Assembly: GCA_014925825.1 (NCBI GenBank)
Contig: JACGCK010000045.1
Span: 1-64,000 of the forward strand
Length of the DNA: 64,000 bases
Direction of reading: 5' to 3'
From: Pholiota molesta
Taxonomy: Eukaryota; Basidiomycota; Agaricomycetes; Agaricales; Strophariaceae
Both the position numbers and the translations under genes were made by a program. Below are positions 27,403-52,687 of the stretch, one piece after another. The notes below the pieces were generated by a model, which was not told where the DNA came from, ran no database searches, and saw nothing but the letters and a program-made list of their open reading frames with translations. Within the stretch, counting starts at the first letter, position 1. The number at the start of each line of letters is the position of its first letter.

Positions 27403-27897
27403 CTATCTTAAGTATTTCCGAACAGCATAAGACAACCCGCAGAGTGTTTCGCAGGATCGGGAAGGAGCAGGAGGAAGGGATTTATCATAATCTGGAACAC
27501 AGTGTGGATCAGACCCATCCACCGGCGAAATCAAGGCGGGTGACTGCACTGCGTCGATCATGGCGCGGTACACATCAAGCGTGAAAGGCCGACCCAAGTC
27601 CAGTTCCGGGATCTTGAAAGCTGATGGTGCACCGGCGTTGATGTTTGTGCTGCTCTTATAGGCGACACCTCTTCCTTCTGTACTAGATATCGCAGTTGAA
27701 AGGTTTGGGCTCGGGCTAACTTCCGCCGTTGGAGTGACTTTCACTGTTCTGTACGACTGGCGCAAAAGACGGTGATCTGAAAGACGGTAGCTCATATGTT
27801 AACCTTCGCTGTATTTTTTGATCGGAAGACCGGTGAGGAGCGTACCATTTTGGTCGTTTTCCTGTACGATGTTTTCCGTGGATTTCTGTGCGTAGGG
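27403..27897 (-). pseudogene. 3' part of a host gene interrupted by the TIR element
   Basis: Minus-strand coding sequence entering from the element border at the CCCTAC word (candidate target duplication), running through a QKSTENIVQEND segment and a likely 69-bp intron (GTACGC...TTAAC...CAG). It then continues in the long frame that ends at 27403. The predicted protein part is Ser/Pro-rich, with a segment LGRPFTLDVYRAMIDAVQSP. No family is recognised. It belongs with 33126-33695, and the two parts join in frame when the element and one copy of the 6-bp duplication are disregarded. Confidence 0.55.
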
Positions 27898-28186
27898 TAC
27901 GGTGGCCGAGAACCGCAAGGCTCACTGGCACTCGACATTTGAACTCGCACCTCGCGTAGCCGACACGTCACATGCGGCCGCGCCGACGTCCATTCACACG
28001 CTCCCGCTGTACCACATCCGATCTTCATGAGTGCGCGAAATGTGTAGCACGGCACTATGGCCTCTAAAAACTATCTAAATAGCTTCTTAAATACTTGTAG
28101 TATATAGGAAGACTGCTTAGAAGTATATACCATATGTATTCCATTCAAAAAATCGATGCCACACCAATTCAAGTGCTATTTGAGAA
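27898..28186 (+). repeat. Left terminal inverted repeat
   Basis: Inverted match to 32837-33119. The outer about 200 bp are almost identical, apart from a 6-bp TGGCAC-type insertion on this side near 27927. The inner about 80 bp hold most of the substitutions. The integrase stop codon lies about 7 bp beyond the inner edge. Confidence 0.85.
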
Positions 28187-28192
28187 GGATAT

Positions 28193-29819
28193 TCAATTCC
28201 CTCCTGCCTCAGCGGCTATGTGGTCCTCTTCAGCACATTCAAGCATTCTGAGAAACACCTTCCAGCCAACCTTCGCACTTAACTCTGGTGATCCGATTTT
28301 TTCAAAGAGGTATTGGCTGAATTGTACCATCTCATCCGAACCAAACTGGAGGAGATCTGGTCTATCATATTTCTCCAAAAGTTTGTCGATGTCTTCTCCT
28401 GGAATCGCAATCAGTTGATTTTCAAGGCCTTCCCAATCTTCTGGGTGCTCGTACATGTCGATTCGGCGACATCCTGTGGGAAGGAGGCTCTTGGCTTGCT
28501 TTCGGACTCTATGGGACTGACTTTCCTTGACAATCATATCAAGTCGAAGTTGCACTATTTTTCCCCAAAGCCACAAAGCCACACCCCTAATAAGATTAAT
28601 TAGAGAGCCTGTTTGTCTTAATTAGAAATATAATGGACGTACTCATGAATAGGATTATCCTGATGAAAGCCGATTAAACCCTTGCCGGAAGTATACTCGA
28701 AAGCAACGTTCCCAAGTTCTTTCTCCCAGATTGGATGCCAATTACGTTCACGAGTAACGTTGTAAATGCTTTTGACGGCCTTGTGAGCAGGAAGAATCTC
28801 TTCAGAGAGATAAGGCTGGTATATTTGTCTTGTCAAATTTAATGAGATGGATGAATTATATTATTGACAACAGTCAATAAACATACCGCAAAGTTGTAAT
28901 CAGTGGAATGAGTTTTGAGAGCTCAGAACCCTTATCAGTCGCTGTTTGTACGCACATTCCTTTGAACAGAATCAGCTTGATAAGTCTATGCACAATAAAC
29001 GAGACACATACCTCCAATCTTTCGAACAAGTCGAAGGTAGAGCGCTGGTGGAACATCTGCTAACCTTGCATTAGGGACAGCCCAAAGTCCCAGTTCAACG
29101 CGGCAGCATTTGTCGATTGCCCCCCAAACTGCGATTCCCATTGATCGAAGTATCTTTTCATGGCCATCCAGACACCACTCTTCATTGGGACCAGAAGAGT
29201 ACAAGCCGTGATGATGCACTTTTCGAGTGCAAGGATGACGAGCTGCAGCTGCACTAGGATTCTCAGCTTGCCGGAAAGTGGTGATAAAATCACTAAGAGG
29301 GTCAAAAAAAAATCAATCAGTATGAATTAATAAACATTAATCTCTATCTCACCGAAGGATATGAACTCCTTTATGCGCCAGTTTTTCCTTGACTAATCGA
29401 GCTCCCCATCTACCAAGTGGATCATCTTCTGAAACCTTCAAAATGGCGACGCCTTGATCAATAGTGTCCATTCCACTTCGTCGTGCTGTCTTGATATTTT
29501 TGTTCTTCATAACAAGTTGGACTGAACGCAAGCTAAGTGCGTCACACAAAAGAATCAGTATAAATAATTTACTATGGCATGAGGTTAATACGAACCTAAT
29601 GGTAATTGCATGATCTCTAAGAAGGTGTTGCGGCATATCCTTCTGTCGGACACCAGTATTGATATAATTTTGAAGAATTGTCGGTAGTTCAGGATGATCT
29701 TCAACTGTTGGGCAATATTGGTAAGTGATAATATCTGAACTGGAAGAGTTTTACTAACGGATAGGGCGATTCCTGTGTTGATTGCTGCCAGAAGGATTGT
29801 TATTTCTATTGAAGCACAT
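28193..29819 (-). CDS. DDE integrase/transposase (rve-type core)
   Basis: Multi-exon gene read as ATG at 29819, exon 1 to 29759, an intron at 29705-29758, and further exons near 29.6, 29.45, 29.2, 29.0, 28.8 and 28.5 kb. The N-terminal about 100 residues look helix-turn-helix-like (LLRDHAITISLRSVQLVMK). The catalytic core shows a first Asp in EEWCLDGHEKI, a second in TATDKGSELSKL, and a candidate Glu in NVTRERNWHPIWEKEL, in the order expected for the retroviral-integrase fold. The C-terminal about 130 residues continue a conserved region seen in Agaricomycete integrase core proteins. All blocks are recovered with short GT-AG introns and no stops that I could find, so the gene may be functional. 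Confidence 0.7.
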
Positions 29820-30064
29820 CCTTGGTCATTGAGATGGTCTCAAAAATTTCAGCTGTACTTATAGAAAATATTGAGACGCACAGACCATACTGAAGGCCTA
29901 GAGGGGTTCCAAACGGATGAGTGCCGGACCACTCAGATCCCTGTCTTCAATTTGGACGTCTCAAAAAATTGGTAGAGAGGCTCTGACATGGTTCGATGAA
30001 TATTTGAGCTCTGGTACTATAAATACAGGTGAATATTTCGTCTCAAGTCCTTACAATATTCCCC
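29820..30064. promoter_or_regulatory. Divergent promoter between integrase and alpha-kinase
   Basis: 245-bp head-to-head interval inside the TIR element that must contain the start regions of both genes. It suggests shared regulation. No specific operator or TATA element is obvious. Confidence 0.4.
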
Positions 30065-32754
30065 ATGGTTTACTGCTCTGGTTGTTCAGCCTCTTTCCCA
30101 AATCTCACTGGTAATCGATGTGGGCGGTGCAAGACCTTTTCTCCAAAGCCTAAAGAGAACTGGCGCATGTGTACTTCATGCGGAGACTTGTACGAGTTTC
30201 TTGATATGGCAATATGTGTCAAATGTCAAGTCGATCAAGGTTTGTCTATCTATTTATTTGTGTCTTTCTGGTACTGAGATACAATTACATTTATAGACAA
30301 GGCTGACAATTCCGGTGCTGCTATTCATCATGCGATGTCTAATTCAGTCAATCCAAGGACCCATAAGTAGCAACCATGGAACTCCAGTCTACACCAATCC
30401 TTATATCAACAACACTATTGCTCACACCCCGGATGACAGTGACGAGGTATTTACATATTCTATTCTATAAATCTCTCCCTTCTATTAACTCTTATTATTT
30501 CGCAGTGGCGCCGTCGAGAGGCGGAAAGGATTACAATCTCAATTGGGAACAGTCACTTAAGCGCTGTTGCACGTGCTAATCCAACCGTCAAGGTCGCAAA
30601 TGCGAAGTTCAAATACAAAGCACCAATGGTATCTCGGGCAGTGGCAAAATATAATATCATGGTATTTAATTTATTTAATTCTACCTTTCTCAGCAGATTA
30701 GTACTGACTTTCTTGTGCAAAGATCAAGAATATAGTTCATCGCAATAGCCCTCGAACAAAAGTGACTTGCTATGATCCAACCATTATTCCAGTTGAGGAG
30801 GGCCATCTCTGGACTGATATACAAGAAGACATCCGAATTTTTTTGGACAATATCTATGGTGAAAATTTTCATCATCGTATTTATTCAAGGTGTGCAATCT
30901 TGTCTTTTAAATCCTGATTTTAAGATTCTATACTGATTATAATTATAGCAAGGATTTTTCGCTTTGTTACCAGAACTCAAACACCGCACTCAGTGAATAT
31001 GAGGAGTCAGCAGTCTTTGGAGTAATTTGGAATGACACCATGAAGAATATTGGTCTCTGTATCACCGAAAAAGCGGCCAAGGTTCGCACTCTTGAGCTGA
31101 TTGCTATAGTCAACTATCCGGTCATAAAATCTATGATGGATGACGAGGATGTGGAAGACGTGAGTATGATTCTTGCTTTATTTGATTTAATTCTATTGAC
31201 CTTACTAATTTATACAAGGAGTTTTCAACCAAGGGTCGGAAGTCCATGAAGCGAAAGGCCCTCAATACAGGTTTTAATCCCTCTACAAGTGTTGACGGCC
31301 GTTCCAAGTGTTCGTATTTTTTTACCTATACCTTGTGCATAACCGACTGATTGTGCTCCAATATTAAGGGATGGCTATCTCAGGCCCTAACTCATATCTC
31401 ACAAATATTACTGCTAATTTCATTCAAGAGGCCATATATATGGTTATGAAGACAGAGTGCAATATTTCCGGACCAAATATACGCTGGGTACGTTCTCCAG
31501 AAATGCAAATGCGCTTAGAAGAGAAGAAAATAGGCGCCGGGAAGACGAAGGAAGCATTCAAGGTTAGCTTCTTCTACATTCTATGATCAAAGTTTACTAA
31601 TATTCTTCTGTAGCTTAAGATCGGTGATTCTAACATAAGCTATGCAGGCAAGCGCTTCTACTACATTGGCGACAATACCGGTCGTGCCGGCGTCTCCTTA
31701 GAAGATAATGTCAAGAATCTTTGTGAAGAATTGGTACGACAAAAGGTCGCACAGCAAGCTCTGATAAAATTTGACGAGCAAATCAAATCCAACAAGATTA
31801 ATGGATATAGTATGTTGCATCCAGCATGTTTTTCTGTAGGCTTATGCTCATTTTTGCATTCATAGATCTCAAAGTGGCCGATGCTTTCCTACTTACAGTC
31901 ACTGAAGGCCAGGATCGAGGCTTAGCATGGATTGTTGACCCACTTTTAGAATCATCCGCTACCATCAAGTTCTCCGGAACAAATGAAGCAGGTCACAATG
32001 GAGACCTTATGGGAATGACTTGCGACGCATTTGCGCATTTCTCCCTCTATGATTCATCGGGCACCTGCGTATTTGTCGACATTCAAGGTAATTTGATAGC
32101 ACATAGTAAGATTGTTATTTTAACTCATACTTTCTTAGGAATTCAAGGAAAAGATAGATCGAGTGGACGTTCTCAAGGGGCAAATACATTAACTCTCTTC
32201 GACTTAATGGCTCATAGGTAACTTAAGTCCAACGAATTACTTGTCTTGAGGGCCATTGCTTTGCATGGCATGTACTCGTCTAAGCCTTTTGGTTATCAGT
32301 ACAAATATATATATTTCAAGAATTCCAAAAGCCTGGAAAGATGCTCTTCACACGACAAGAAAAATTTTTATGTTGTTATTATTATTAAACTCGCTTTCAT
32401 AGTTTTCATATACACTATCATATTGCTGTTATGTAACAAGAAACTGGATTGCATTGACTCAAACTACAAAGTTGTAACTAAAACAATTCTAAAATGCTAT
32501 CCCATGACCCCGCGATCTTCGTGCTCGACGTAGTCGATGACGGTACTGAAGGCATCGACGAATTCAAGCGCCAGCACACCTGCAACTCCATATGCAAAGA
32601 GCTTCAACTTCCGGACATTTCCCAGGAGGACGAAGCTCAAGCGCCGGTAGAACCTGCAGACGACTTGAAATACATCACTAAACCTAATGATGGGGCCAAC
32701 AAAAAACTCCTGAAGGTAAATTTTTCACTCTTTCATGTAAATTCATGCTTATAA
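30065..32754 (+). CDS. Alpha-type protein kinase with N-terminal CxxC zinc region, possibly broken near its end
   Basis: Atypical serine/threonine kinase of the MHCK/eEF2K class. The first about 55 residues carry four CxxC pairs (CSGC, CGRC, CTSC, CVKC), probably a zinc-binding module. The kinase domain follows over many short exons. Diagnostic features are WIVDPLLESSATIKFSG, the CDAFAHFSLYDSSG segment, the VDIQG motif with its Asp, FDLMAH, and the C-terminal zinc motif HTCNSICKELQL near 32,600. Between 32,221 and 32,493 I find no GT-AG pair that joins FDLMAH to the HTCN segment in frame, so this copy may be decayed there or use an unusual exon. Agaricomycetes are known for expanded alpha-kinase families; linkage to a transposon is the unusual point here. 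Confidence 0.65.
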
Positions 32755-32836
32755 GTGTTCTATACAGTAGGCTCTGAGGCTGAAGGCAATTGAGCTATGG
32801 CTAATCCATAATTGCTTCAATCCAAACAGATTACAA

Positions 32837-33119
32837 TTCTCAAACAATACTTGAGTTGGTGCGGCATCGATTTTTTGAATGAAATACATAGAATATATAC
32901 TTCTAAGCAGTTTTCCTATATACTACAAGTATTTAAGAAGCTATTTAGATAGTTTTTAGAGGCCATAGTGCCGTGCTACACATTTCGCGCACTCATGAAG
33001 ATCGGATGTGGTACAGCGGGAGCGTGTGAATGGACGTCGGCGCGGCCGCATGTGACGTGTCGGCTACGCGAGGTGCGAGTTCAAATGTCGAGTGAGCCTT
33101 GCGGTTCTCGGCCACCGTA
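32837..33119 (-). repeat. Right terminal inverted repeat
   Basis: Inverted match to 27898-28186. It ends at CTCGGCCACCGTA (33119), followed by six bases and then the GTAGGG direct repeat. Confidence 0.85.
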
Positions 33120-33125
33120 CTACGG

Positions 33126-33695
33126 GTAGGGAGTCATTCGGGTCCATCTCGAACCATCGGTGGAATCGACATAATAGTGCTGCCCGGTCACTGCATCGTA
33201 TTCTATACAAATTGCTCCCGTAAATTTAATCTCGCTCTTTGAGTCCTATTAGAAATTTCAGTTCATAAGAATCCTCCAAGAATTTATTTGTAGCCATGCC
33301 ACTCACCTCCATGTTTTCCAAATGCTCTTGCAAGATTGGAGGCTAATGGCACTAAGAGAAAAATTAGTCTTGGTCGATGGCTTGCGTTCCTATGGGATGT
33401 CGTTGAACGAGCAATGAGCGCCGGTTAAAGGTGCTTTAGATTGGGTAGCGGAGTGAACAACAGGCTGAAGGGAAGTCTTTATATTAGTGGTTTACAGTGC
33501 AAGCTATATATATCCTTACCATGCCCATACCCGGGGAATGTACTGAGTTGTAGTGCCAATACAGCGGGAGAATTTTAGCGTCTCACATGTATGCCCTGCG
33601 ATGATCCCAATTCTAGTCTCAGGCCTCGGGTTTGACAAGGCGTTCGAACATTTAGTTTTCATCATATACGCGCCGTCCGTCGTCACGACCTGCAT
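33126..33695 (-). pseudogene. 5' part of the host gene interrupted by the TIR element
   Basis: Minus-strand exons. The first coding exon starts at ATG 33695 and spans about 55 codons to an ...QYIPR end. After a long intron a small exon PPILQEHLENME (33,310-33,345) follows. A third exon has SEIKFTGAICIEYDAVTG and a YYVDSTDGSRWTRMTPY tail reaching the CCCTAC word at the element border, after which element sequence gives an immediate stop. The phase of all three joins is consistent. The protein family is not recognised. This is the upstream half of the gene whose downstream half is at 27403-27897. Confidence 0.5.
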
Positions 33696-44330: not shown

Positions 44331-46950
44331 ATGACGAACAACGAGAACAAGAACACCATCAACAGTCTCAAGGATCTTGGCTCAAGCCTCAAGGACGCCG
44401 CGTCGTCCTTCGCCAAAATGCAATTTACAGATCCCAAGAACACGGCCACCGGGTTCCGCAAAGGAAAGCGTGCACAGAAGGAGATCGCGAAATACTTCGA
44501 TCCTGTCCCGAGAAATCAGGCTGGGCTTTTAGTCGCTGGCGCCTTGGATAAGGCGCTGGCTGAATGCAAGTCGAAAGTCGAGAGCATCGCCGGACGGTGC
44601 CGCGCTGCGAATCGCAAATTCAGGCAAGTCTAGCCAAGTCGTTCAAGCATCCACGAAATCTGATATAACCACCGCAGAGACATCGAATTCGATCTCGAAA
44701 AAGATCAATATCTATGCCGCTATGGATTACTGGGAAATGCAGAAGGTCAACCTGAAGCCGCAGTCAAACGCGTTACTGAGATCTTCGATAAACCTGTGTT
44801 CTTTGGGCCTGATGGTCCCAACGCAAGTGATATACGTCAAGGCGAATTGGGCAACTGCTGGTTCTTAGCGGCGCTATCTGCTGTATCGACGGTTCCTGGC
44901 CTTGTAGAGAAATTCTGTGTCGCGGTAGGCATCCATTCACTCCTAAGAGATTTCTGACTTACGGTATCGCATTAGCGGGATGAAGAAGTTGGGGTTTATG
45001 GCTTCATTTTCTTCCGTGATTGCTATTGGCAGCCTGTCATTGTCGACGAGTACGTTCCTTTTTTCTAACTCAAAATTCGATACGAATTGAGCTAATTCTT
45101 TGTGGTTGGATAGCCTTCTTTTCTGGTCTCCACCCAAGTTTGACGAGCTCACTCCTAGTGAAAAAGTGCTCTACTACAACGATAGAGACATGTATCATCA
45201 GGTCGCTGAGAAGACCGGAAAGGGCCTCAAGTACGCGCGATCTGGGAATGTGGGTGAGACGTGGGTACCCCTTATCGAGAAAGCATACGCCAAATTGCAC
45301 GGCGACTACGCTTCCCTTGAAGGTGGCTTCTTGTCAGATGCAATAGAAGATCTTACCGGGTGAATAACTTTCCTCGCGTTTTTTCCACAATCTAACGCTG
45401 TATCGTCTGCAGCGGGGTCGCTACCTCTTTCCAAATGGCAGACCTGCTCAATCCAGCTAAATTCTGGGATGATGAGCTCCAGCATGCCGGTCTGAAGACA
45501 CACCTCTTCGGTGTTACTTTCCACATGAACGAGGCGCGCAGTGAAGTCGCGAAGCCTACGGTCCAAGGACTCATTCCCTCGCATGCATACTCCGTCCTGC
45601 GGGCGCGAGAGTCTAAAGGAAAGCGCTTCGTGGTTATACGCAACCCTTGGGGAGACAGCGAGTGGACGGGACCTTGGGCCGATGGATCAAAGGAATGGAA
45701 GGGGAAGTGGTTCCAGGTGCTTGACGAGCTTCAGCATGAATTTGGAGATGATGGAAAGTTTGTCATGGAATGTAAGTCTCTTTTTAATTGCACTTCAAGC
45801 GTGCGCGTGAGGTCCAATATTCAATTTTCGATTCGATTTAGACTCGGATTTCCTGTCGGTATTCGGCCAAATCGACCGTGCCACTCTGTTCGACGCAAGT
45901 TGGGTTATGTCGTCCATCTGGCTTCACATCACTCCTCAACCGATTTTTCATCCATGGACCTATGGTGACGCATACTGTATGTATTTTTTCTTATATCAAA
46001 GCTTGAATAAATACATAATTACTCCTCTCGAACTGCTAGATTACTTCACCCTCAAGCAGCCTTCTCCTTCGGTCATTGTCCTCTCACAGACTGATCATAG
46101 GTATTTCAATAGATTGAACGGGGAAGATCCCTGGTGGTTGCTCGACTTCCTTGTTTACCGAAAAGGTTTATTTGAGCCAGTTCTTGTTGGTATGTCTGGT
46201 GTCAGCTTGGGTAGCCAGCGTAGTGTTTCGTGCGAGTTGTATCTTCAGGCGGGAGATTATATCGTGTTGGTGAGTATATTCCTCCAGAAAACACATATTT
46301 AATGGTGATAAGGGAACAACAATGCTGATCGATATATTTCAATTTTGTAGCCTCGGATGGAACCTCGGGCCCAGGGGAGCGTCGTAAGTGCCCATTTGTT
46401 TCCTTGGCTATTTCTAATGCATCTATTTATTCGTTACTTCTGACCTATAGAAAATGAGAGAGGACGGTGACCAATGGGGCACACACAAGCTCAGCCGCAT
46501 GCTAACAGAGCGAGCTAAATCTCATTCTGTTGCCCGAAGTAAGTGCTAACTTACTTATCGTGGGTTTCTGAAGCAGATCATTCATTGATTCATGATTCTC
46601 CTTTTATTTTAGATTATGATATACGGTAAGCTCTATTGATATTGATGGAATCTCTCGAGAGACACTGAAAATACAACAGGCGAGAGATTCAATATATTCC
46701 AATATCGCCTGATGTCGCCCTTGTACTTGATGGCATCGCAGAACGAGGTACATCATCTGAAACAGAGGACGCAGATGAAAATGGGGACGATGAGAAGAAA
46801 GTCACAGGGGACACTAAGAAGGCCGACGCTGGGTCGAAAGGTAATTCCGACAATGGTTCAGGACCAACGCCAGACCCGCTGTTCTTGGGCCTTCGAGTTT
46901 ACACGCAGAACGGGGCCATTACTACTGTAAGCGGCAGGGCAAAGGCTTGA
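44331..46950 (+). CDS. Calpain-like cysteine protease B (GNCW variant)
   Basis: Tandem paralogue of calpain A with the same exon pattern. The catalytic Cys motif reads [16 protein letters not shown] (near 44,850), so the residue before Cys is Asn instead of the usual Asp. The oxyanion Gln, catalytic His ([11 protein letters not shown], near 45,583) and Asn ([13 protein letters not shown], near 45,643) are kept. The acidic linker of copy A is missing and replaced by a short KMREDGDQW segment. The C-terminal tail again ends [15 protein letters not shown]. The frame appears intact across all introns. Activity is probable but not certain because of the motif change. Confidence 0.83.
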
Positions 46951-47662
46951 ATTTCATTCGTATGCTTGCTCTCCTGGAGGAATCCTCAGAAAGTGAGTAT
47001 TTATTTGGACCTGCATAAGCAACATGAAACTAAAAAAACTGTTGCAGGGGATCTGACATCTCTTTCAAATCGGGAAAAAACGCTGTCTCAGTCTGATCTC
47101 AATGGTCATTAAATGTTGTCATCAGTGCTAGATGAAACGTCTTCATTCGCATGTGTAAATTCTGAATTAAATGAACCAAATTAGCTGTTTCTGAGCCTTA
47201 GAGCTTGAGCTCTTAAACGGTTACCTATTGAGGAAATAACTTCCACATTAGGACGGTAGCAAGAGAGCCGGCTCCGTGGGTTGAAACTAAGACCGACGAA
47301 TCTAAATAGTAGATCAAACCGTCTTTATGACGTTGTCATATGACCTTCATCTCCCCGACAAATAGTTAAAGGCAAGATTCTAAAAATGCGGAACTCGATA
47401 TGAACGAATAATATGCAAAAGATGGTACAGACGCTGAGAAACAATAAGGAAAATAAAAATGATATCCATTTCAATTAGCTGTTGCATAGAATCACATCCT
47501 CGATACGAAGAACACTGTTCATCTCATCTCCACTTCCAACTATCCTTCCCCTGAATTTCTTCGGTATATTGTTACTCACCACTTGAGTACTCTCTAGCTC
47601 CATCCAACCATGGTTCACGCTCTCGTCCATTCCATCTGCCATCTTCTCCCATATCCATATAT
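46951..47662. other. Intergenic region between calpain B and HSE1
   Basis: The 3' flanks of two convergent genes. The first about 250 bp are part of the duplicated unit; the rest is AT-rich without a gene. Confidence 0.5.
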
Positions 47663-50600
47663 TCAACCAGACACAGCGCTTCCACTACCCGGGTCAATCA
47701 ACGTCACTCCACCCAGCTGGTTCGCAAGTTGGGGGAAATACGACCCTTCCACAGGCGCTGTTGCCCCTGGTCCCTCACGTGCATGTACCGGCGAGGGCCC
47801 AGTCTTCTTTGGAAGGACCCACGCAGGCGTCGACGATGCCTGTGTCGGACTACCGGCGCTGTTCTGACGCGCTGGACCCTGACCAAAGCCGTACGCCTGC
47901 GTTGGCGATGCCTGCTTCGGCGCCGTGTCAGCCTGGGTGGGCTGCTGTTGGTAAGCGGTGGTATATGCGGGCTGGTCTTGCGGCTGGTATGAGGTAGGAT
48001 ACTGTTGTGGCTGCTGGGCGACGGGCGAAGTAGTTCTGATGCCCGACACCGGACCGTACGCCAATTCGTTCTCAATAGGCTGTTGCGTCTGAGGTTGGGC
48101 CTGCGTTTGCGGCTGAGTCTGGGTTGATTGCCGGCTATTCACCTGCTGCCGCTGCGGCTGCTGCTGGTCCGGACTCTGAGTCCCTGGCTGAGGCGCTGCC
48201 TGCCCATCCGTGACGCCTGGAATCGAGATGAAGTAGACAGACCCAGCCAAATCCTTTCCGCCCTGGGCATAGTACTGTGCCCATGCTTGCACATTCGGAT
48301 CTGCATAGGTGTAGGAGGGGTTGTATACATATGGAGGCGGGCCGGATATAGGCTGTTGAGGTGCCTGTTGAGCCGGGGGTTGGGCTTGAGGTTCCGGCTG
48401 GACGTGGGTCTGAGGGTGGGCCTGAGGTTGAGGTGACGAAGCGGCATGAGCAGGTTCTGGCTGAGCCTGCACCTGGGGTTGCTGCTGGGGAATAGGTTGC
48501 GGTTGCTGCTGCTGCTGGACGGGCTGCTGCTGAATGGGCTGTTGCTGAATAGGCTGCTGCTGAAGGGGCTGCTGCTGAATGGGCTGTTGTTGAATGGGCT
48601 GCTGCTGAACGGGCAGCGGTTGGATTGGTTGCTGCTGGATTGGCTGCTGCTGGATTGGCTGTTGCTGGATTGGCTGCTGCTGGATTGGCTGCTGTTGGGT
48701 TGGCTGCTGTTGGGCGGGCTGCTGTTGAACAGGATGTTGTTGAATAGGCTGCTGCTGTTGCTGAAGGACCTGTGGCTGAGCAGGCTGCTGCTGGCCCTGC
48801 ACGGGATATGGCGTCGGGCCTTGCTGCGAGTACGGCGCTCCAGGCTGATGTCCCGAGTATCCACCCTGTGGAACCACTCCGTATCCTCCTGGCACTCCTT
48901 GTTGAGGTTGCGGTTGCTGCTGCTGCTGCTGCTGATGTTGGGCGCCTGGTCCTTGTTGCCCATATGCAGCGGACGCTGCCGGGTCGACGTACTGCCCAGG
49001 CTGTCCTTGTGGCTGCCCCGGCCCGGGCTGTCCCGGCTGCCCAGGGCCAGGGCCAACTCCGGGCGACGCATACGGGCTGGCGCCCATCATCTCCGGTGCA
49101 GGCTGCCCGTGCATACCATACGCAGCCGGAGGCCCCTGCGCTCCTGGGTACGCACCGTATGCCGCGGGCGGTTGCTGGTCGTACCCTCCTGGCGCAGGCG
49201 CGTTCCAGCCATATGTTGCTTGCGGATGGAGCGCGGCGGCCGCCCCGCGCGAGTCAGGCCGACCCTGCGGGTGGCCGTATTGAGGGTTGCGGAAGGTGGG
49301 CTGGTCGTATACTAGATGGCGAAGGGTTAGATTCGGTGCACAGGGACGAACGGATAAATGTAAAATTACCTCCAGAATGTCTGGCAAGACTTTCCTCCAT
49401 CATCCTGTCGAAGATGGTGCGTGCACGGACAAAAGTTTCGTTCATCGATACCAAGTCGGCTGTTGATCACAATTTGAATGGATGAAATCTATGATAGAAA
49501 GAAAACTAACCTCGTTTCTGGCTGTACTTGTCGATAAGCTTCACTATCTTGGGGCGAAGGGCCATACTCGATCGATAGAGTTCCTATTTAGAAGAAGATC
49601 ATGCATTGATGACTGAAAATCATATAGAAACCAATAAAAAACATACCTGAATCTCTTCATTATCAGCAAGATTGTCCTTCGCTGGATCCATCGCACGGAG
49701 CATGTTCAGTAGCTTCTCTACATTCACTGCCTGTGCGAAGACCGCCGCCTCTTGCTCTGCCTCCTTAGCCAGTTCTGCTGCCGTAGGCTCCGGCATCGCT
49801 TCCTATACATAATGGACCAAATTCATGAGCACTACACATGTTTTCGAGAACAAGAAGGTACGAACCACATAATTGACTGGAAAGATCCCAGTGCGCCCCT
49901 TGAGCTGCCCGCGCCACCAATCTTTGTAGCCGCGGTCGACAACTTTGATGATATCGCCCTTCTCGAACGCCAGCTCCCCCGGCTCTGTGGGCTCAAATGT
50001 GTGCAGGGCCCTGACGCGGGTGACGATGTTCATATTGGGAGTCACCGATGGCCCAGCCGGCGTGGTACTTGATGACACCGCGGGTGCTGGCGCTGCCGCC
50101 ACGGGTGCAGCCGCAGGTGTGGGTGTAGCTTCCGGCGCAGCAGATGGCGCGGACGTGCTGTGCTGTTTCAGCTGCGCCTGATAGTACTGCTGCTGCTGGC
50201 GCTGCTGTGCTGCGACGGTGTTCGGGGAGGGTGTCCGGGCGGGGACGTAGCCGCCATCGGAATATTTGGGAGCGGCGAAATAATGCGATGAGCCTGCGCC
50301 GGAAGGGGCGGTTGTTTGCGCTGTTGGTGTCGGATTACTGCGGGCAGCGGAGCTCTTGGAGCCTGAAGCTGCGGCAGCCGCGCTGCTGCTCGAAGAGCCG
50401 GCTGCGACGCTGTAGTTTGACCACTGGTTGCGGCCGCCCCTGTCTTGCATGGACATCTCGAGCACACGCTGCAGTTCTTCCTCTTCCTTGCGCCGGATCT
50501 CGTCGTCGACTGTAGGAGGAGGCGCTTCTTCAGGCTGTTCAAACTTATAGTCTAGGATAATAAAAACAAATCATACATCTTACGATAAACTGGAAGACGG

Positions 50601-51234
50601 GGGCGCAGCACGTACTTTTGGCCTTCAGATTGTTATAGCAGTCCTCCATAATGCCCAGTGTCTCGTCCTTCTCGAATTCCGCCGTCCAAAGGGCTATCAG
50701 CCCGAGTGCACGTCTACGAACTTTCTCATGCGTATTCTGCGTATTCGTATCTCGGATGAGGTTAGATATTAGGCAGTTTTGAGTGAATGACGTACCCGAT
50801 CTGTGATCAATTTCTCCAGACCTTGCGTGAAGGCCCTTGATGCTAGTTCGCGATGGACTTCGATTCCGGTGTTCTTTCCTAGGGCTTCAGTCAACGACAG
50901 CGCATATAACTGCACATTTGGGTTCCGATGGGCGAGTCGCTTGAGAATGGCGGCGATCGCAGCATGAGCTCTGCATGATTGGAACGAGAATCCGAATAAG
51001 CAGCTGCCCTAGTCAACACCAGGCATTTGTTCAATAAACGTACCCTGGTTGCCCCTCATCTTGTACTTTGTCACATAGGTTCAATATAAGTTCCCAGTTT
51101 TCGCTGGTCAAATTCTCGTCTGTGGTCTTGTCTGGACGTCGATATAAGCATATTAGCCCTCATTTGCGGAATATGGGGTAAGCTTACTCACTGACGATGT
51201 CCTCGTATTCTGTCGATGAACCGCCGCCAAACAT
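47663..51234 (-). CDS. HSE1: ESCRT-0 subunit Hse1 (VHS, UIM, SH3, GAT, Gln-rich tail)
   Basis: Partner of Vps27 that binds ubiquitinated cargo at endosomes. The start is ATG 51234 (MFGGGSSTEYEDIV). The N-terminal exons give a VHS domain (ENWELILNLCDKV, AIAAILKRLAHRNPNVQLYA, LGLIALWTAEFEKDE). A UIM follows (EEELQRVLEMSMQD), then an Ala/Ser/Pro linker and an SH3 domain (VRALHTFEPTEPGELAFEKG ... DWWRGQL ... GIFPVNYV). GAT-type helices come next (AVNVEKLLNMLRAMDPAKDN and FVRARTIFDRMMEESL). The C-terminal about 570 residues are Pro/Gln/Gly-rich, with many tandem QQPIQ-type repeats (48,480-48,770). The tail is much longer than in yeast Hse1, as is common in basidiomycetes. The stop is at 47663. Confidence 0.88.
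48480..48770 (-). repeat. Tandem repeat coding for QQPIQ units in Hse1
   Basis: About fifteen imperfect 15-18-bp units, CTGCTGCTGAATGGG-like on the plus strand, encoding a Gln/Pro/Ile array. Such arrays expand and contract easily, so length may vary between strains. Confidence 0.8.
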
Positions 51235-51404
51235 GGTGGCTTGCGTACAGGAGGAATGTGGGTGAATACGGGATGATATGAAGAGCAGAAGAAAGATATC
51301 GAGCTGCGGGATGGCTATGCAGGAAAGAGCTAGAAAGAGCGTAAGTGCTGTGGCTGTGACAAAGCGTTACTGCCCTTTCCTCACGACCCCCACCACCATC
51401 CGCA

Positions 51405-52030
51405 ATGGCGAAAGGTATCTAGTCCTCATCATCGGCGCTGCGTAACCGCTGATTAAATATGCGATCTAGTTCCAAGAAATTTCCGCCTCCTCGAAGAGCT
51501 CGAGAAGGGCGAGAAGGGCATCGGCGATGGCTCGTGCTCTTATGGACTCGAGGACGGCGACGATGTCCTGATGAGCAACTGGAACGGCACGATCATCGGC
51601 CCAGGGCACGTAAGCACCAACCATATCATACTAGACAATAGCGAAGAGTGCTAACATCGTATATCTCAACGCCCATTGACCGCCGTGCTGGTGTGCCTCA
51701 CTAGACCGTCCACGAGAACCGCATCTACAGCTTGAAGATCACCTGCGGGGCTTCATATCCCGATGTACGACCCGATGTGCAGTTTATCTCTCGGGTAAAC
51801 TTGCCTTTTGTCAATCAGACAAATGGAATCGTCGATGCCACCAAACTTCCTGTCCTTTCGAATTGGTCCAGGAATCTCAGCATCGAGAATGTGCTGGTCG
51901 AGATTCGGAAGTGCGTCATGCTATCTTTATAGTCTGTTCATCAAATCCCTGATCGACATCTTGATCTAGGGAGATGGCATCGTTCAATAACAGGAAGCTA
52001 CCCCAACCACCTGAGGGCACTACTTTCTAA
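51405..52030 (+). CDS. MMS2: Ubiquitin-conjugating E2 variant (Mms2/Uev1-like)
   Basis: Catalytically inactive E2 variant that pairs with Ubc13 to build Lys63-linked ubiquitin chains in DNA-damage tolerance and endocytic sorting. Exon 1 is only ten bases (ATG GCG AAA G), then a 54-bp intron, then [76 protein letters not shown] and the C-terminal [11 protein letters not shown] follow. The position where active E2s carry the Cys is not a Cys here, as expected for UEVs. Length is about 140 residues, normal for the family. It is divergent from HSE1 with 170 bp between starts. Confidence 0.9.
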
Positions 52031-52687
52031 AGAATCCAAGAATATTTTGTATTTCCACCAATTCTAACCTTCAAATGTGTTTATCAATAGTCATCGTCAC
52101 CAATCAATCGGAAATTTATAATCCATCTACGCTGATAATCGGAACACTAGTATTGGTGTTGTCAAACGGAGCCATACCACCATTGGTCATCCAAGTCTAT
52201 CTCATTATTAGACTGGCTCACACGCACAGCAACATCACGGCCCCTAATGTCCTAGTCAAATTCGTTCTCAGGGAGTCACGAACACCTGCATGAAAACCTG
52301 CATTTATTACAACACATCGTTGAAGTCATCGACCGTTCTTGTAAAGAATGATGATGGCATATTTTAGATTGCGAGTTTCTAAGCGTACTGTCAAAACCGC
52401 GCATCGTTATCTGGGTTTTTGGGAGATCAAACAAATTGTTGCCATTATTGCAATGAGCGACAAGAATGTCATAAGTACTATCTAGCATCGTCAGACTTAC
52501 CGATATTTCATGGACGGTATCATGCGTAAATAAATACAATCTGTACAGTGATTCTTTCAGAATGGGTTTTCCACTGACGACACAAGTATGCTCGGGGTGA
52601 TCGTGAATGATGTTCTAAATACGAGAGAATATGAATCTGTGATCATCTCATACGTACAATTGTATAAGCGTCTTTCCTTGGTCTTCG
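52031..52687. other. Intergenic region, no gene recognised
   Basis: Between the convergent UEV and calpain C genes. The frames at 52075-52293 and 52276-52539 lack any domain or splice support. Confidence 0.5.

What the first reader, a model, noticed from the sequence alone, without database searches (positions are those of the whole stretch)
27892..33131. A TIR element pairing a DDE integrase with an alpha-kinase
Long inverted repeats (about 280-290 bp, roughly 95% or better, outer 200 bp nearly identical) enclose two divergent multi-exon genes: an rve-fold integrase and an alpha-type kinase with a four-CxxC zinc head. A 6-bp direct repeat GTAGGG flanks the unit, and a host exon reads through when the unit is left out. 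I know of integrase-derived DNA transposons (Ginger-type) and of expanded alpha-kinase families in Agaricomycetes. I do not recall a described transposon family with a kinase partner. The kinase could be a cargo gene, a regulator of the transposase, or a host-manipulating factor; all three are inferences.
Basis: partly seen in the sequence, partly recalled or inferred. Interest (0 to 1): 0.88.

Follow-up and report, generated by a model that had tools for sequence, protein, structure and literature searches.

The report
Mushroom transposon carrying a protein kinase
This stretch of a mushroom genome is a real jumping gene of a known superfamily (IS3EU) that carries, besides its DNA-moving enzyme, a gene for an alpha-type protein kinase; that pairing has been noted in print for related fungal elements, but what the kinase does for the element is unknown.

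The parts
27892..27897 (.). target site GTAGGG, left copy
   Evidence: a single copy at the empty site C79
27898..28186 (+). left terminal inverted repeat, begins TACGGTGGCCGAG
28196..29819 (-). IS3EU-type DDE transposase gene, 7 exon blocks (29760-29819, 29598-29705, 29352-29531, 29010-29291, 28886-28957, 28642-28818, 28196-28585), no stop inside the blocks
   Evidence: PF24764 E 1.6e-7; exon blocks; homologues; fold of the C600 homologue P0002
29820..30064 (.). 245-bp spacer between the predicted start codons of the divergent genes, presumed bidirectional promoter region (inference)
30065..32715 (+). alpha-kinase gene, about 11 exons; four-CxxC head in exon 1 (30065-30239); PF02816 match spans roughly 31536 to 32595
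   Evidence: PF02816 E 1.3e-21 on the peptide joined from exon blocks; exon blocks; exon structure of the sister copy
30364..30367 (+). 4 bp not present in the sister copy; shifts the reading frame in exon 2 of this copy
32239..32535 (+). about 300 bp where the sister copy has 58 bp (last intron and start of last exon); alters the C-terminal part of the kinase
32837..33119 (-). right terminal inverted repeat, ends CTCGGCCACCGTA
33120..33125 (.). six extra bases CTACGG between TIR end and target-site copy; absent from the empty site
33126..33131 (.). target site GTAGGG, right copy

Best explanation
The unit is a copy of a two-gene IS3EU DNA transposon. A DDE transposase of the PF24764 (rva_4) type binds the long TIRs, cuts at TACGG/CCGTA and joins the element to staggered target cuts, giving 6-bp duplications (ends, target repeat and empty site shown; chemistry inferred from the superfamily). 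The alpha-kinase is a resident second gene of this transposase lineage, not a recent passenger, and most likely serves the element itself: an active Ser/Thr kinase, carried by its zinc head and middle domain to a protein or chromatin partner, phosphorylates either the transposase or a host silencing or repair factor and so raises transposition or expression (residence, conserved catalytic residues and purifying selection shown; activity, target and effect inferred). This particular copy still has open transposase exon blocks but a damaged kinase; the sister copy C600 has an open kinase gene.
Against: No functional data. Of 16 TIR-linked or closely related loci scanned, only 2 hold both genes nearly whole and 7 hold any kinase sequence; 7 hold transposase sequence only (for C593, C99 and C49 only about 1.5 kb beside the match was held). 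The window copy's kinase is damaged. Gene orientation is not fixed: C100, C300 and C578a have both genes on one strand transposase first, C359 kinase first, C578b tail-to-tail, and for C100, C300, C359 and C578b no complete TIR pair was found in the DNA held. Six PF24764 loci have no alpha-kinase hit on their contigs. Five alpha-kinase loci have no such transposase in the flanks held or in the genome search. Co-divergence may partly mirror host phylogeny. pN/pS for the transposase is not significant alone (4 against 4 changes, p 0.08).
Confidence: 0.7

Rival explanations
1. Passenger cargo: an alpha-kinase of the host was captured and is carried without benefit to the element, decaying after each insertion.
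For: The window copy's kinase is damaged; 9 of 16 loci scanned have no kinase sequence.
Against: Same pairing in about five transposase lineages of this genome, in seven other species by shared contig length and in TET+ IS3EU families of other fungi; purifying selection on the kinase; catalytic residues nearly invariant; the sister copy's kinase is open. In the deletion derivatives the transposase is also incomplete.
Confidence: 0.11
2. Host-directed or driver role: the kinase acts on the host (mating, spore survival, cytoskeleton) so that nuclei with the element are favoured, rather than on transposition.
For: Alpha-kinases of other eukaryotes act on myosin, eEF2 and other proteins (PDB titles; roles recalled). 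The zinc head and a possible beta-grasp domain suggest protein partners.
Against: No linkage, expression or phenotype data. I ran no test for secretion, spore killing or drive.
Confidence: 0.1
3. Relic: the kinase once mattered in the lineage, but the elements now move with transposase alone, and the kinase is being lost.
For: C600b and C607 moved without a kinase, with TSDs GCTCCG and GCCGAC and 98.5% identity to each other; the window kinase is damaged.
Against: C600b and C607 also lack an intact transposase (N-terminus missing, frame broken), so they were moved in trans and say nothing on whether the source needed its kinase. The C600 kinase is open. The synonymous excess in the kinase, much of it in the diverged tract, shows selection until recently.
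Confidence: 0.08
4. Not a transposon: a chance inverted duplication around two unrelated genes.
For: None found.
Against: Seven other two-ended copies with exact 6-bp repeats, and an empty site.
Confidence: 0.005

Closest known systems
TET+ IS3EU families of Pucciniales and Tuber (Kojima 2025, PMC12730594; passages, section 25 and part 1 of section 24 seen)
   Same: IS3EU; 6-bp TSD; TAYGG..CCRTA; transposase and alpha-kinase in opposite orientation
   Different: The window element has no TET/JBP gene between the two. The genome has five Tet_JBP hits (one over the family cut-off) on contigs C1 (two), C34, C268 and C124, none of which bears a pair. C578a and similar loci have both genes on one strand.
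Styx element of Zymoseptoria (PMC10853768; passages seen)
   Same: TIR element with integrase, related by its authors to IS3EU, 6-bp TSD, further coding sequences, demonstrated new insertions
   Different: 7.9 kb, four coding sequences, 36-bp TIR; the word kinase occurs once in the text, for a gene neighbouring an insertion
IS3EU/GingerRoot superfamily of Repbase (PMC10045372; passages seen)
   Same: TA..TA termini, usually 6-bp TSD, integrase-like transposase
   Different: The word kinase does not occur in that paper's text
Ginger1/Ginger2 transposons
   Same: Integrase-derived DNA transposons with TIRs (recalled)
   Different: Distinct from IS3EU/GingerRoot in the tree reported in PMC10045372, in part without statistical support (passages); 4-bp TSD (recalled)
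Kyakuja and Zisupton elements with TET genes (PMC12730594, abstract and passages)
   Same: Agaricomycete DNA transposons with an enzyme gene next to the transposase
   Different: Other transposase superfamilies; the partner is a dioxygenase
MHCK A, eEF2K, TRPM7, ALPK1 alpha-kinases
   Same: Kinase fold and conserved C-terminal zinc-region motif
   Different: None has the four-CxxC head (recalled); none is transposon-borne (recalled)

Membership tests
IS3EU superfamily | 6-bp target-site duplication | tested here: met
   7 of the 8 copies of this TIR family with both ends identified have an exact 6-bp repeat directly beside the ends: C600 GACGTG, C10 CTGGAT, C289 AATCTT, C32 CCTAGC, C157 TACGGG, C600b GCTCCG, C607 GCCGAC. 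The window copy has GTAGGG on both sides but the right one six bases out; the empty site has one. In the other families the repeat is less clean: GGCATG plus one base at C28, CTACA at C578a.
IS3EU superfamily | TA..TA ends, TAYGG..CCRTA in the fungal families of PMC12730594 | tested here: met
   TACGG..CCGTA at the window copy and the other two-ended copies
IS3EU superfamily | TIRs longer than 30 bp (stated for the fungal TET+ families) | tested here: met
   289/283 bp
IS3EU superfamily | DDD/E transposase with integrase-like core | tested here: met
IS3EU superfamily | Groups with Repbase IS3EU transposases in a tree | not testable with these tools
   Repbase sequences are not held
TET+ IS3EU | TET/JBP gene between transposase and kinase | tested here: not met
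   245-bp spacer between the predicted start codons; no Tet_JBP hit on the window's contig
TET+ IS3EU | transposase and alpha-kinase in opposite orientations | tested here: met
   head-to-head in the window, C600 and C28; tail-to-tail at C578b; not opposite at C100, C300, C578a and C359
Ginger1/2 | 4-bp TSD (recalled) | tested here: not met
   6 bp in 7 of 8 copies
Alpha-kinase family PF02816 | family profile over cut-off | tested here: met
   78 bits against 21.3, profile positions 2-185 of 185 (peptide joined from exon blocks of the window copy)
Alpha-kinase family PF02816 | conserved Lys, two Asp, zinc His/Cys | tested here: met
   Residues numbered as in P0048, 29 aligned proteins, gaps counted as losses: K371 28, E397 27, H481 29, D495 28, Q497 28, D519 28, H546 27, C548 27, C552 26 of 29; assignment to known roles recalled
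Alpha-kinase family PF02816 | kinase activity | not testable with these tools
   no biochemistry available

The most novel reading that the evidence does not exclude
A large, old lineage of fungal IS3EU transposons is built as an obligate transposase plus protein kinase pair, kept together through family divergence and gene inversion. Many 'expanded' fungal alpha-kinase genes would then be transposon genes, and an element-encoded kinase would be a core part of a eukaryotic transposition or anti-silencing system.
Probability: 0.45. Interest if true: 0.8.

Novelty: new member of a known kind. Interest (0 to 1): 0.5.

Why it matters
A protein kinase as a standing component of a DNA transposon is unusual. 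The only mention I found in the papers searched is one passage in a study of another gene, without a proposed function. The data here show that the pairing exists without TET, in several diverged families of one mushroom, and under purifying selection, so the question 'what does the kinase do for the element' becomes testable in a tractable fungus. It also warns that alpha-kinase counts in fungal genome papers may in part count transposons; for example PF02816 is listed as enriched (ratio 2.34, Q 0.035) in wheat rusts against eight other basidiomycetes (Table 3 of PMC5295586, passages seen). That link is my inference.

Full report
Observation. The window contains a TIR element at 27898-33119. 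The TIRs are 289 and 283 bp and 94% identical, with one 6-bp indel. It starts TACGGTGGCCGAG and ends CTCGGCCACCGTA. GTAGGG stands directly left of it; on the right the same hexamer stands six bases further out, after CTACGG. Joining the flanks and searching the same genome gave a continuous 89% match over all 746 bases at C79:158959-159731, with a single GTAGGG and neither the element nor the six bases. The host exon is open across the joint in the window (70 aa) and in the paralogue (98-aa open frame), so the element interrupts a coding exon.

Organism. Proteins P0002 and P0047, named Pholiota molesta, lie on a contig of 215,938 bp, the length of C600; P0046, also Pholiota molesta, lies on a contig of 303,761 bp, the length of the window's contig C389.

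State of this copy. Against the sister copy C600 the window kinase has 4 bp more in exon 2 (frame shift near 30364), and about 300 bp at ~32239-32535 stand where C600 has 58 bp holding the last intron and the start of the last exon. The C600 kinase reads 635 aa through 11 exons with GT-AG borders; its public model P0047 skips one of them. The transposase blocks of the window copy are open, and the C600 copy differs from them at 8 coding sites. Divergence between the two copies is mosaic: 4.0% in the 5' half of the kinase (30065-31340) against 1.2% in the transposase side and in the 3' kinase part. The kinase changes are relatively poor in amino-acid changes: 23.5 of 386.5 synonymous and 20.5 of 1392.5 nonsynonymous sites, pN/pS 0.24, Fisher 1.5e-6. 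The transposase has 4 of 282 and 4 of 987, p 0.08.

Copies. A pattern for the terminal 21 bases (up to one mismatch) gave 25 matches in the genome, none for the reversed control. In eight copies I identified both ends; seven have exact 6-bp repeats beside them (C600 GACGTG, C10 CTGGAT, C289 AATCTT, C32 CCTAGC, C157 TACGGG, C600b GCTCCG, C607 GCCGAC). Of 16 TIR-linked or closely related loci scanned with both proteins, 2 hold both genes nearly whole (window, C600), 3 more hold pieces of both (C10, C289, C138b), 2 kinase pieces only (C32, C6), 7 transposase pieces only (C246, C157, C600b, C607, C593, C99, C49; for the last three only about 1.5 kb beside the match was held) and 2 neither (C138a, C533). 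C600b and C607 lack the transposase N-terminus and have broken frames, so they are deletion derivatives moved in trans.

Pairing across the genome. PF02816 finds 13 loci (a lower bound). Eight have a transposase of this lineage within about 5 kb: window, C600, C28, C359, C578 twice, C300, C100. Expectation from 17 such transposase loci is 0.04; copies of one family are not independent, but the eight fall in about five transposase lineages. C28 is a separate TIR-bounded element (45221-52404, 138-bp TIR at 88%, GGCATG on both sides with one extra base) with the same head-to-head order. C578:67047-73716 is TIR-bounded (29 bp at 97%, CTACA on both sides) with both genes on one strand. The order is also same-strand at C100 and C300 (transposase first) and C359 (kinase first), and tail-to-tail at C578b; complete TIR pairs were not found there. 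The kinases at C100, C300 and C578a keep a four-CxxC head; at C28 three CxxC were seen; none was found at C578b. The five unpaired kinase loci give best exon pieces of 18-27 bits against the kinase profile, the six paired ones other than window and C600 give 30-86 bits, a narrow gap at the low end; none of the five shows a CxxC pair of this spacing in the DNA held. Six further PF24764 loci have no alpha-kinase hit on their contigs and form a separate clade (local support 1.000, short fragments).

Other species. Comparing species and contig lengths in the protein listings, 8 contigs hold both a transposase and a kinase: Pholiota molesta C600, Agrocybe chaxingu (5,213 bp, genes NLJ89_g10675 and g10676), A. 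pediades (26,871 bp), Panaeolus papilionaceus, Mycena olivaceomarginata, M. vitilis, M. filopes and Coprinopsis cinerea (8 of the 44 transposases; 8 of the 39 kinases). Distances within the eight pairs correlate (r 0.84; 13 of 40,320 permutations as high); host phylogeny may contribute.

What is known. The ends, TSD and transposase fit IS3EU (PMC10045372 and PMC12730594, passages). PMC12730594 states that all TET+ IS3EU families carry a TET/JBP gene between transposase and alpha-kinase genes, which are in opposite orientations (section read); the word kinase occurs only twice in its main text, both in that passage, so no kinase function is proposed. The pairing itself is thus published. I found no other paper in this library linking alpha-kinases to a DNA transposon.

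Mechanism. Shown: a mobile IS3EU element, a resident kinase with conserved catalytic residues (26-29 of 29, gaps counted as losses), purifying selection, recurrent linkage. Inferred: the kinase is active and works for the element, by phosphorylating the transposase or a host silencing or repair factor. The TET gene that sits between the same two genes in other families makes an anti-silencing setting plausible, but nothing here decides between targets. Confidence: IS3EU element with resident kinase about 0.93; kinase serving the element about 0.70.

Noticed in passing
window 33120-33125: Six extra bases CTACGG between the right TIR end and the target-site copy; they contain TACGG, the first five bases of the element. 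Carry-over from a donor site or an end-joining trace are possible; unexplained.
   Followed up: partly
L046/L049 (C600:195667-195720): The low-coordinate end of a recently inserted 2.1-kb relative (TIRs 99.75% identical over 401 bp) carries a 33-bp direct repeat of its terminus.
   Followed up: no
L009 against window 30065-31340: The 5' half of the kinase is about three times more diverged between the two copies than the transposase side or the 3' kinase part; suggests recombination between element lineages.
   Followed up: partly
L028 (C25) and L029 (end of C246): Same profile hits, scores and frame lengths for an alpha-kinase-like gene on two contigs; possible uncollapsed duplicate or haplotype in the assembly.
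   Followed up: no
P0012: A Coprinopsis cinerea record named citrate synthase I carries PF24764; probably a misannotated transposase.
   Followed up: no
P0081: A Hohenbuehelia grisea protein combines an alpha-kinase domain with PF13358 (DDE_3); a possible link to another transposase type, or a gene-model fusion.
   Followed up: no
PMC5295586, passages: PF02816 is listed among families enriched in wheat rusts; IS3EU elements with alpha-kinases are reported from rusts, so transposon copies may contribute.
   Followed up: no
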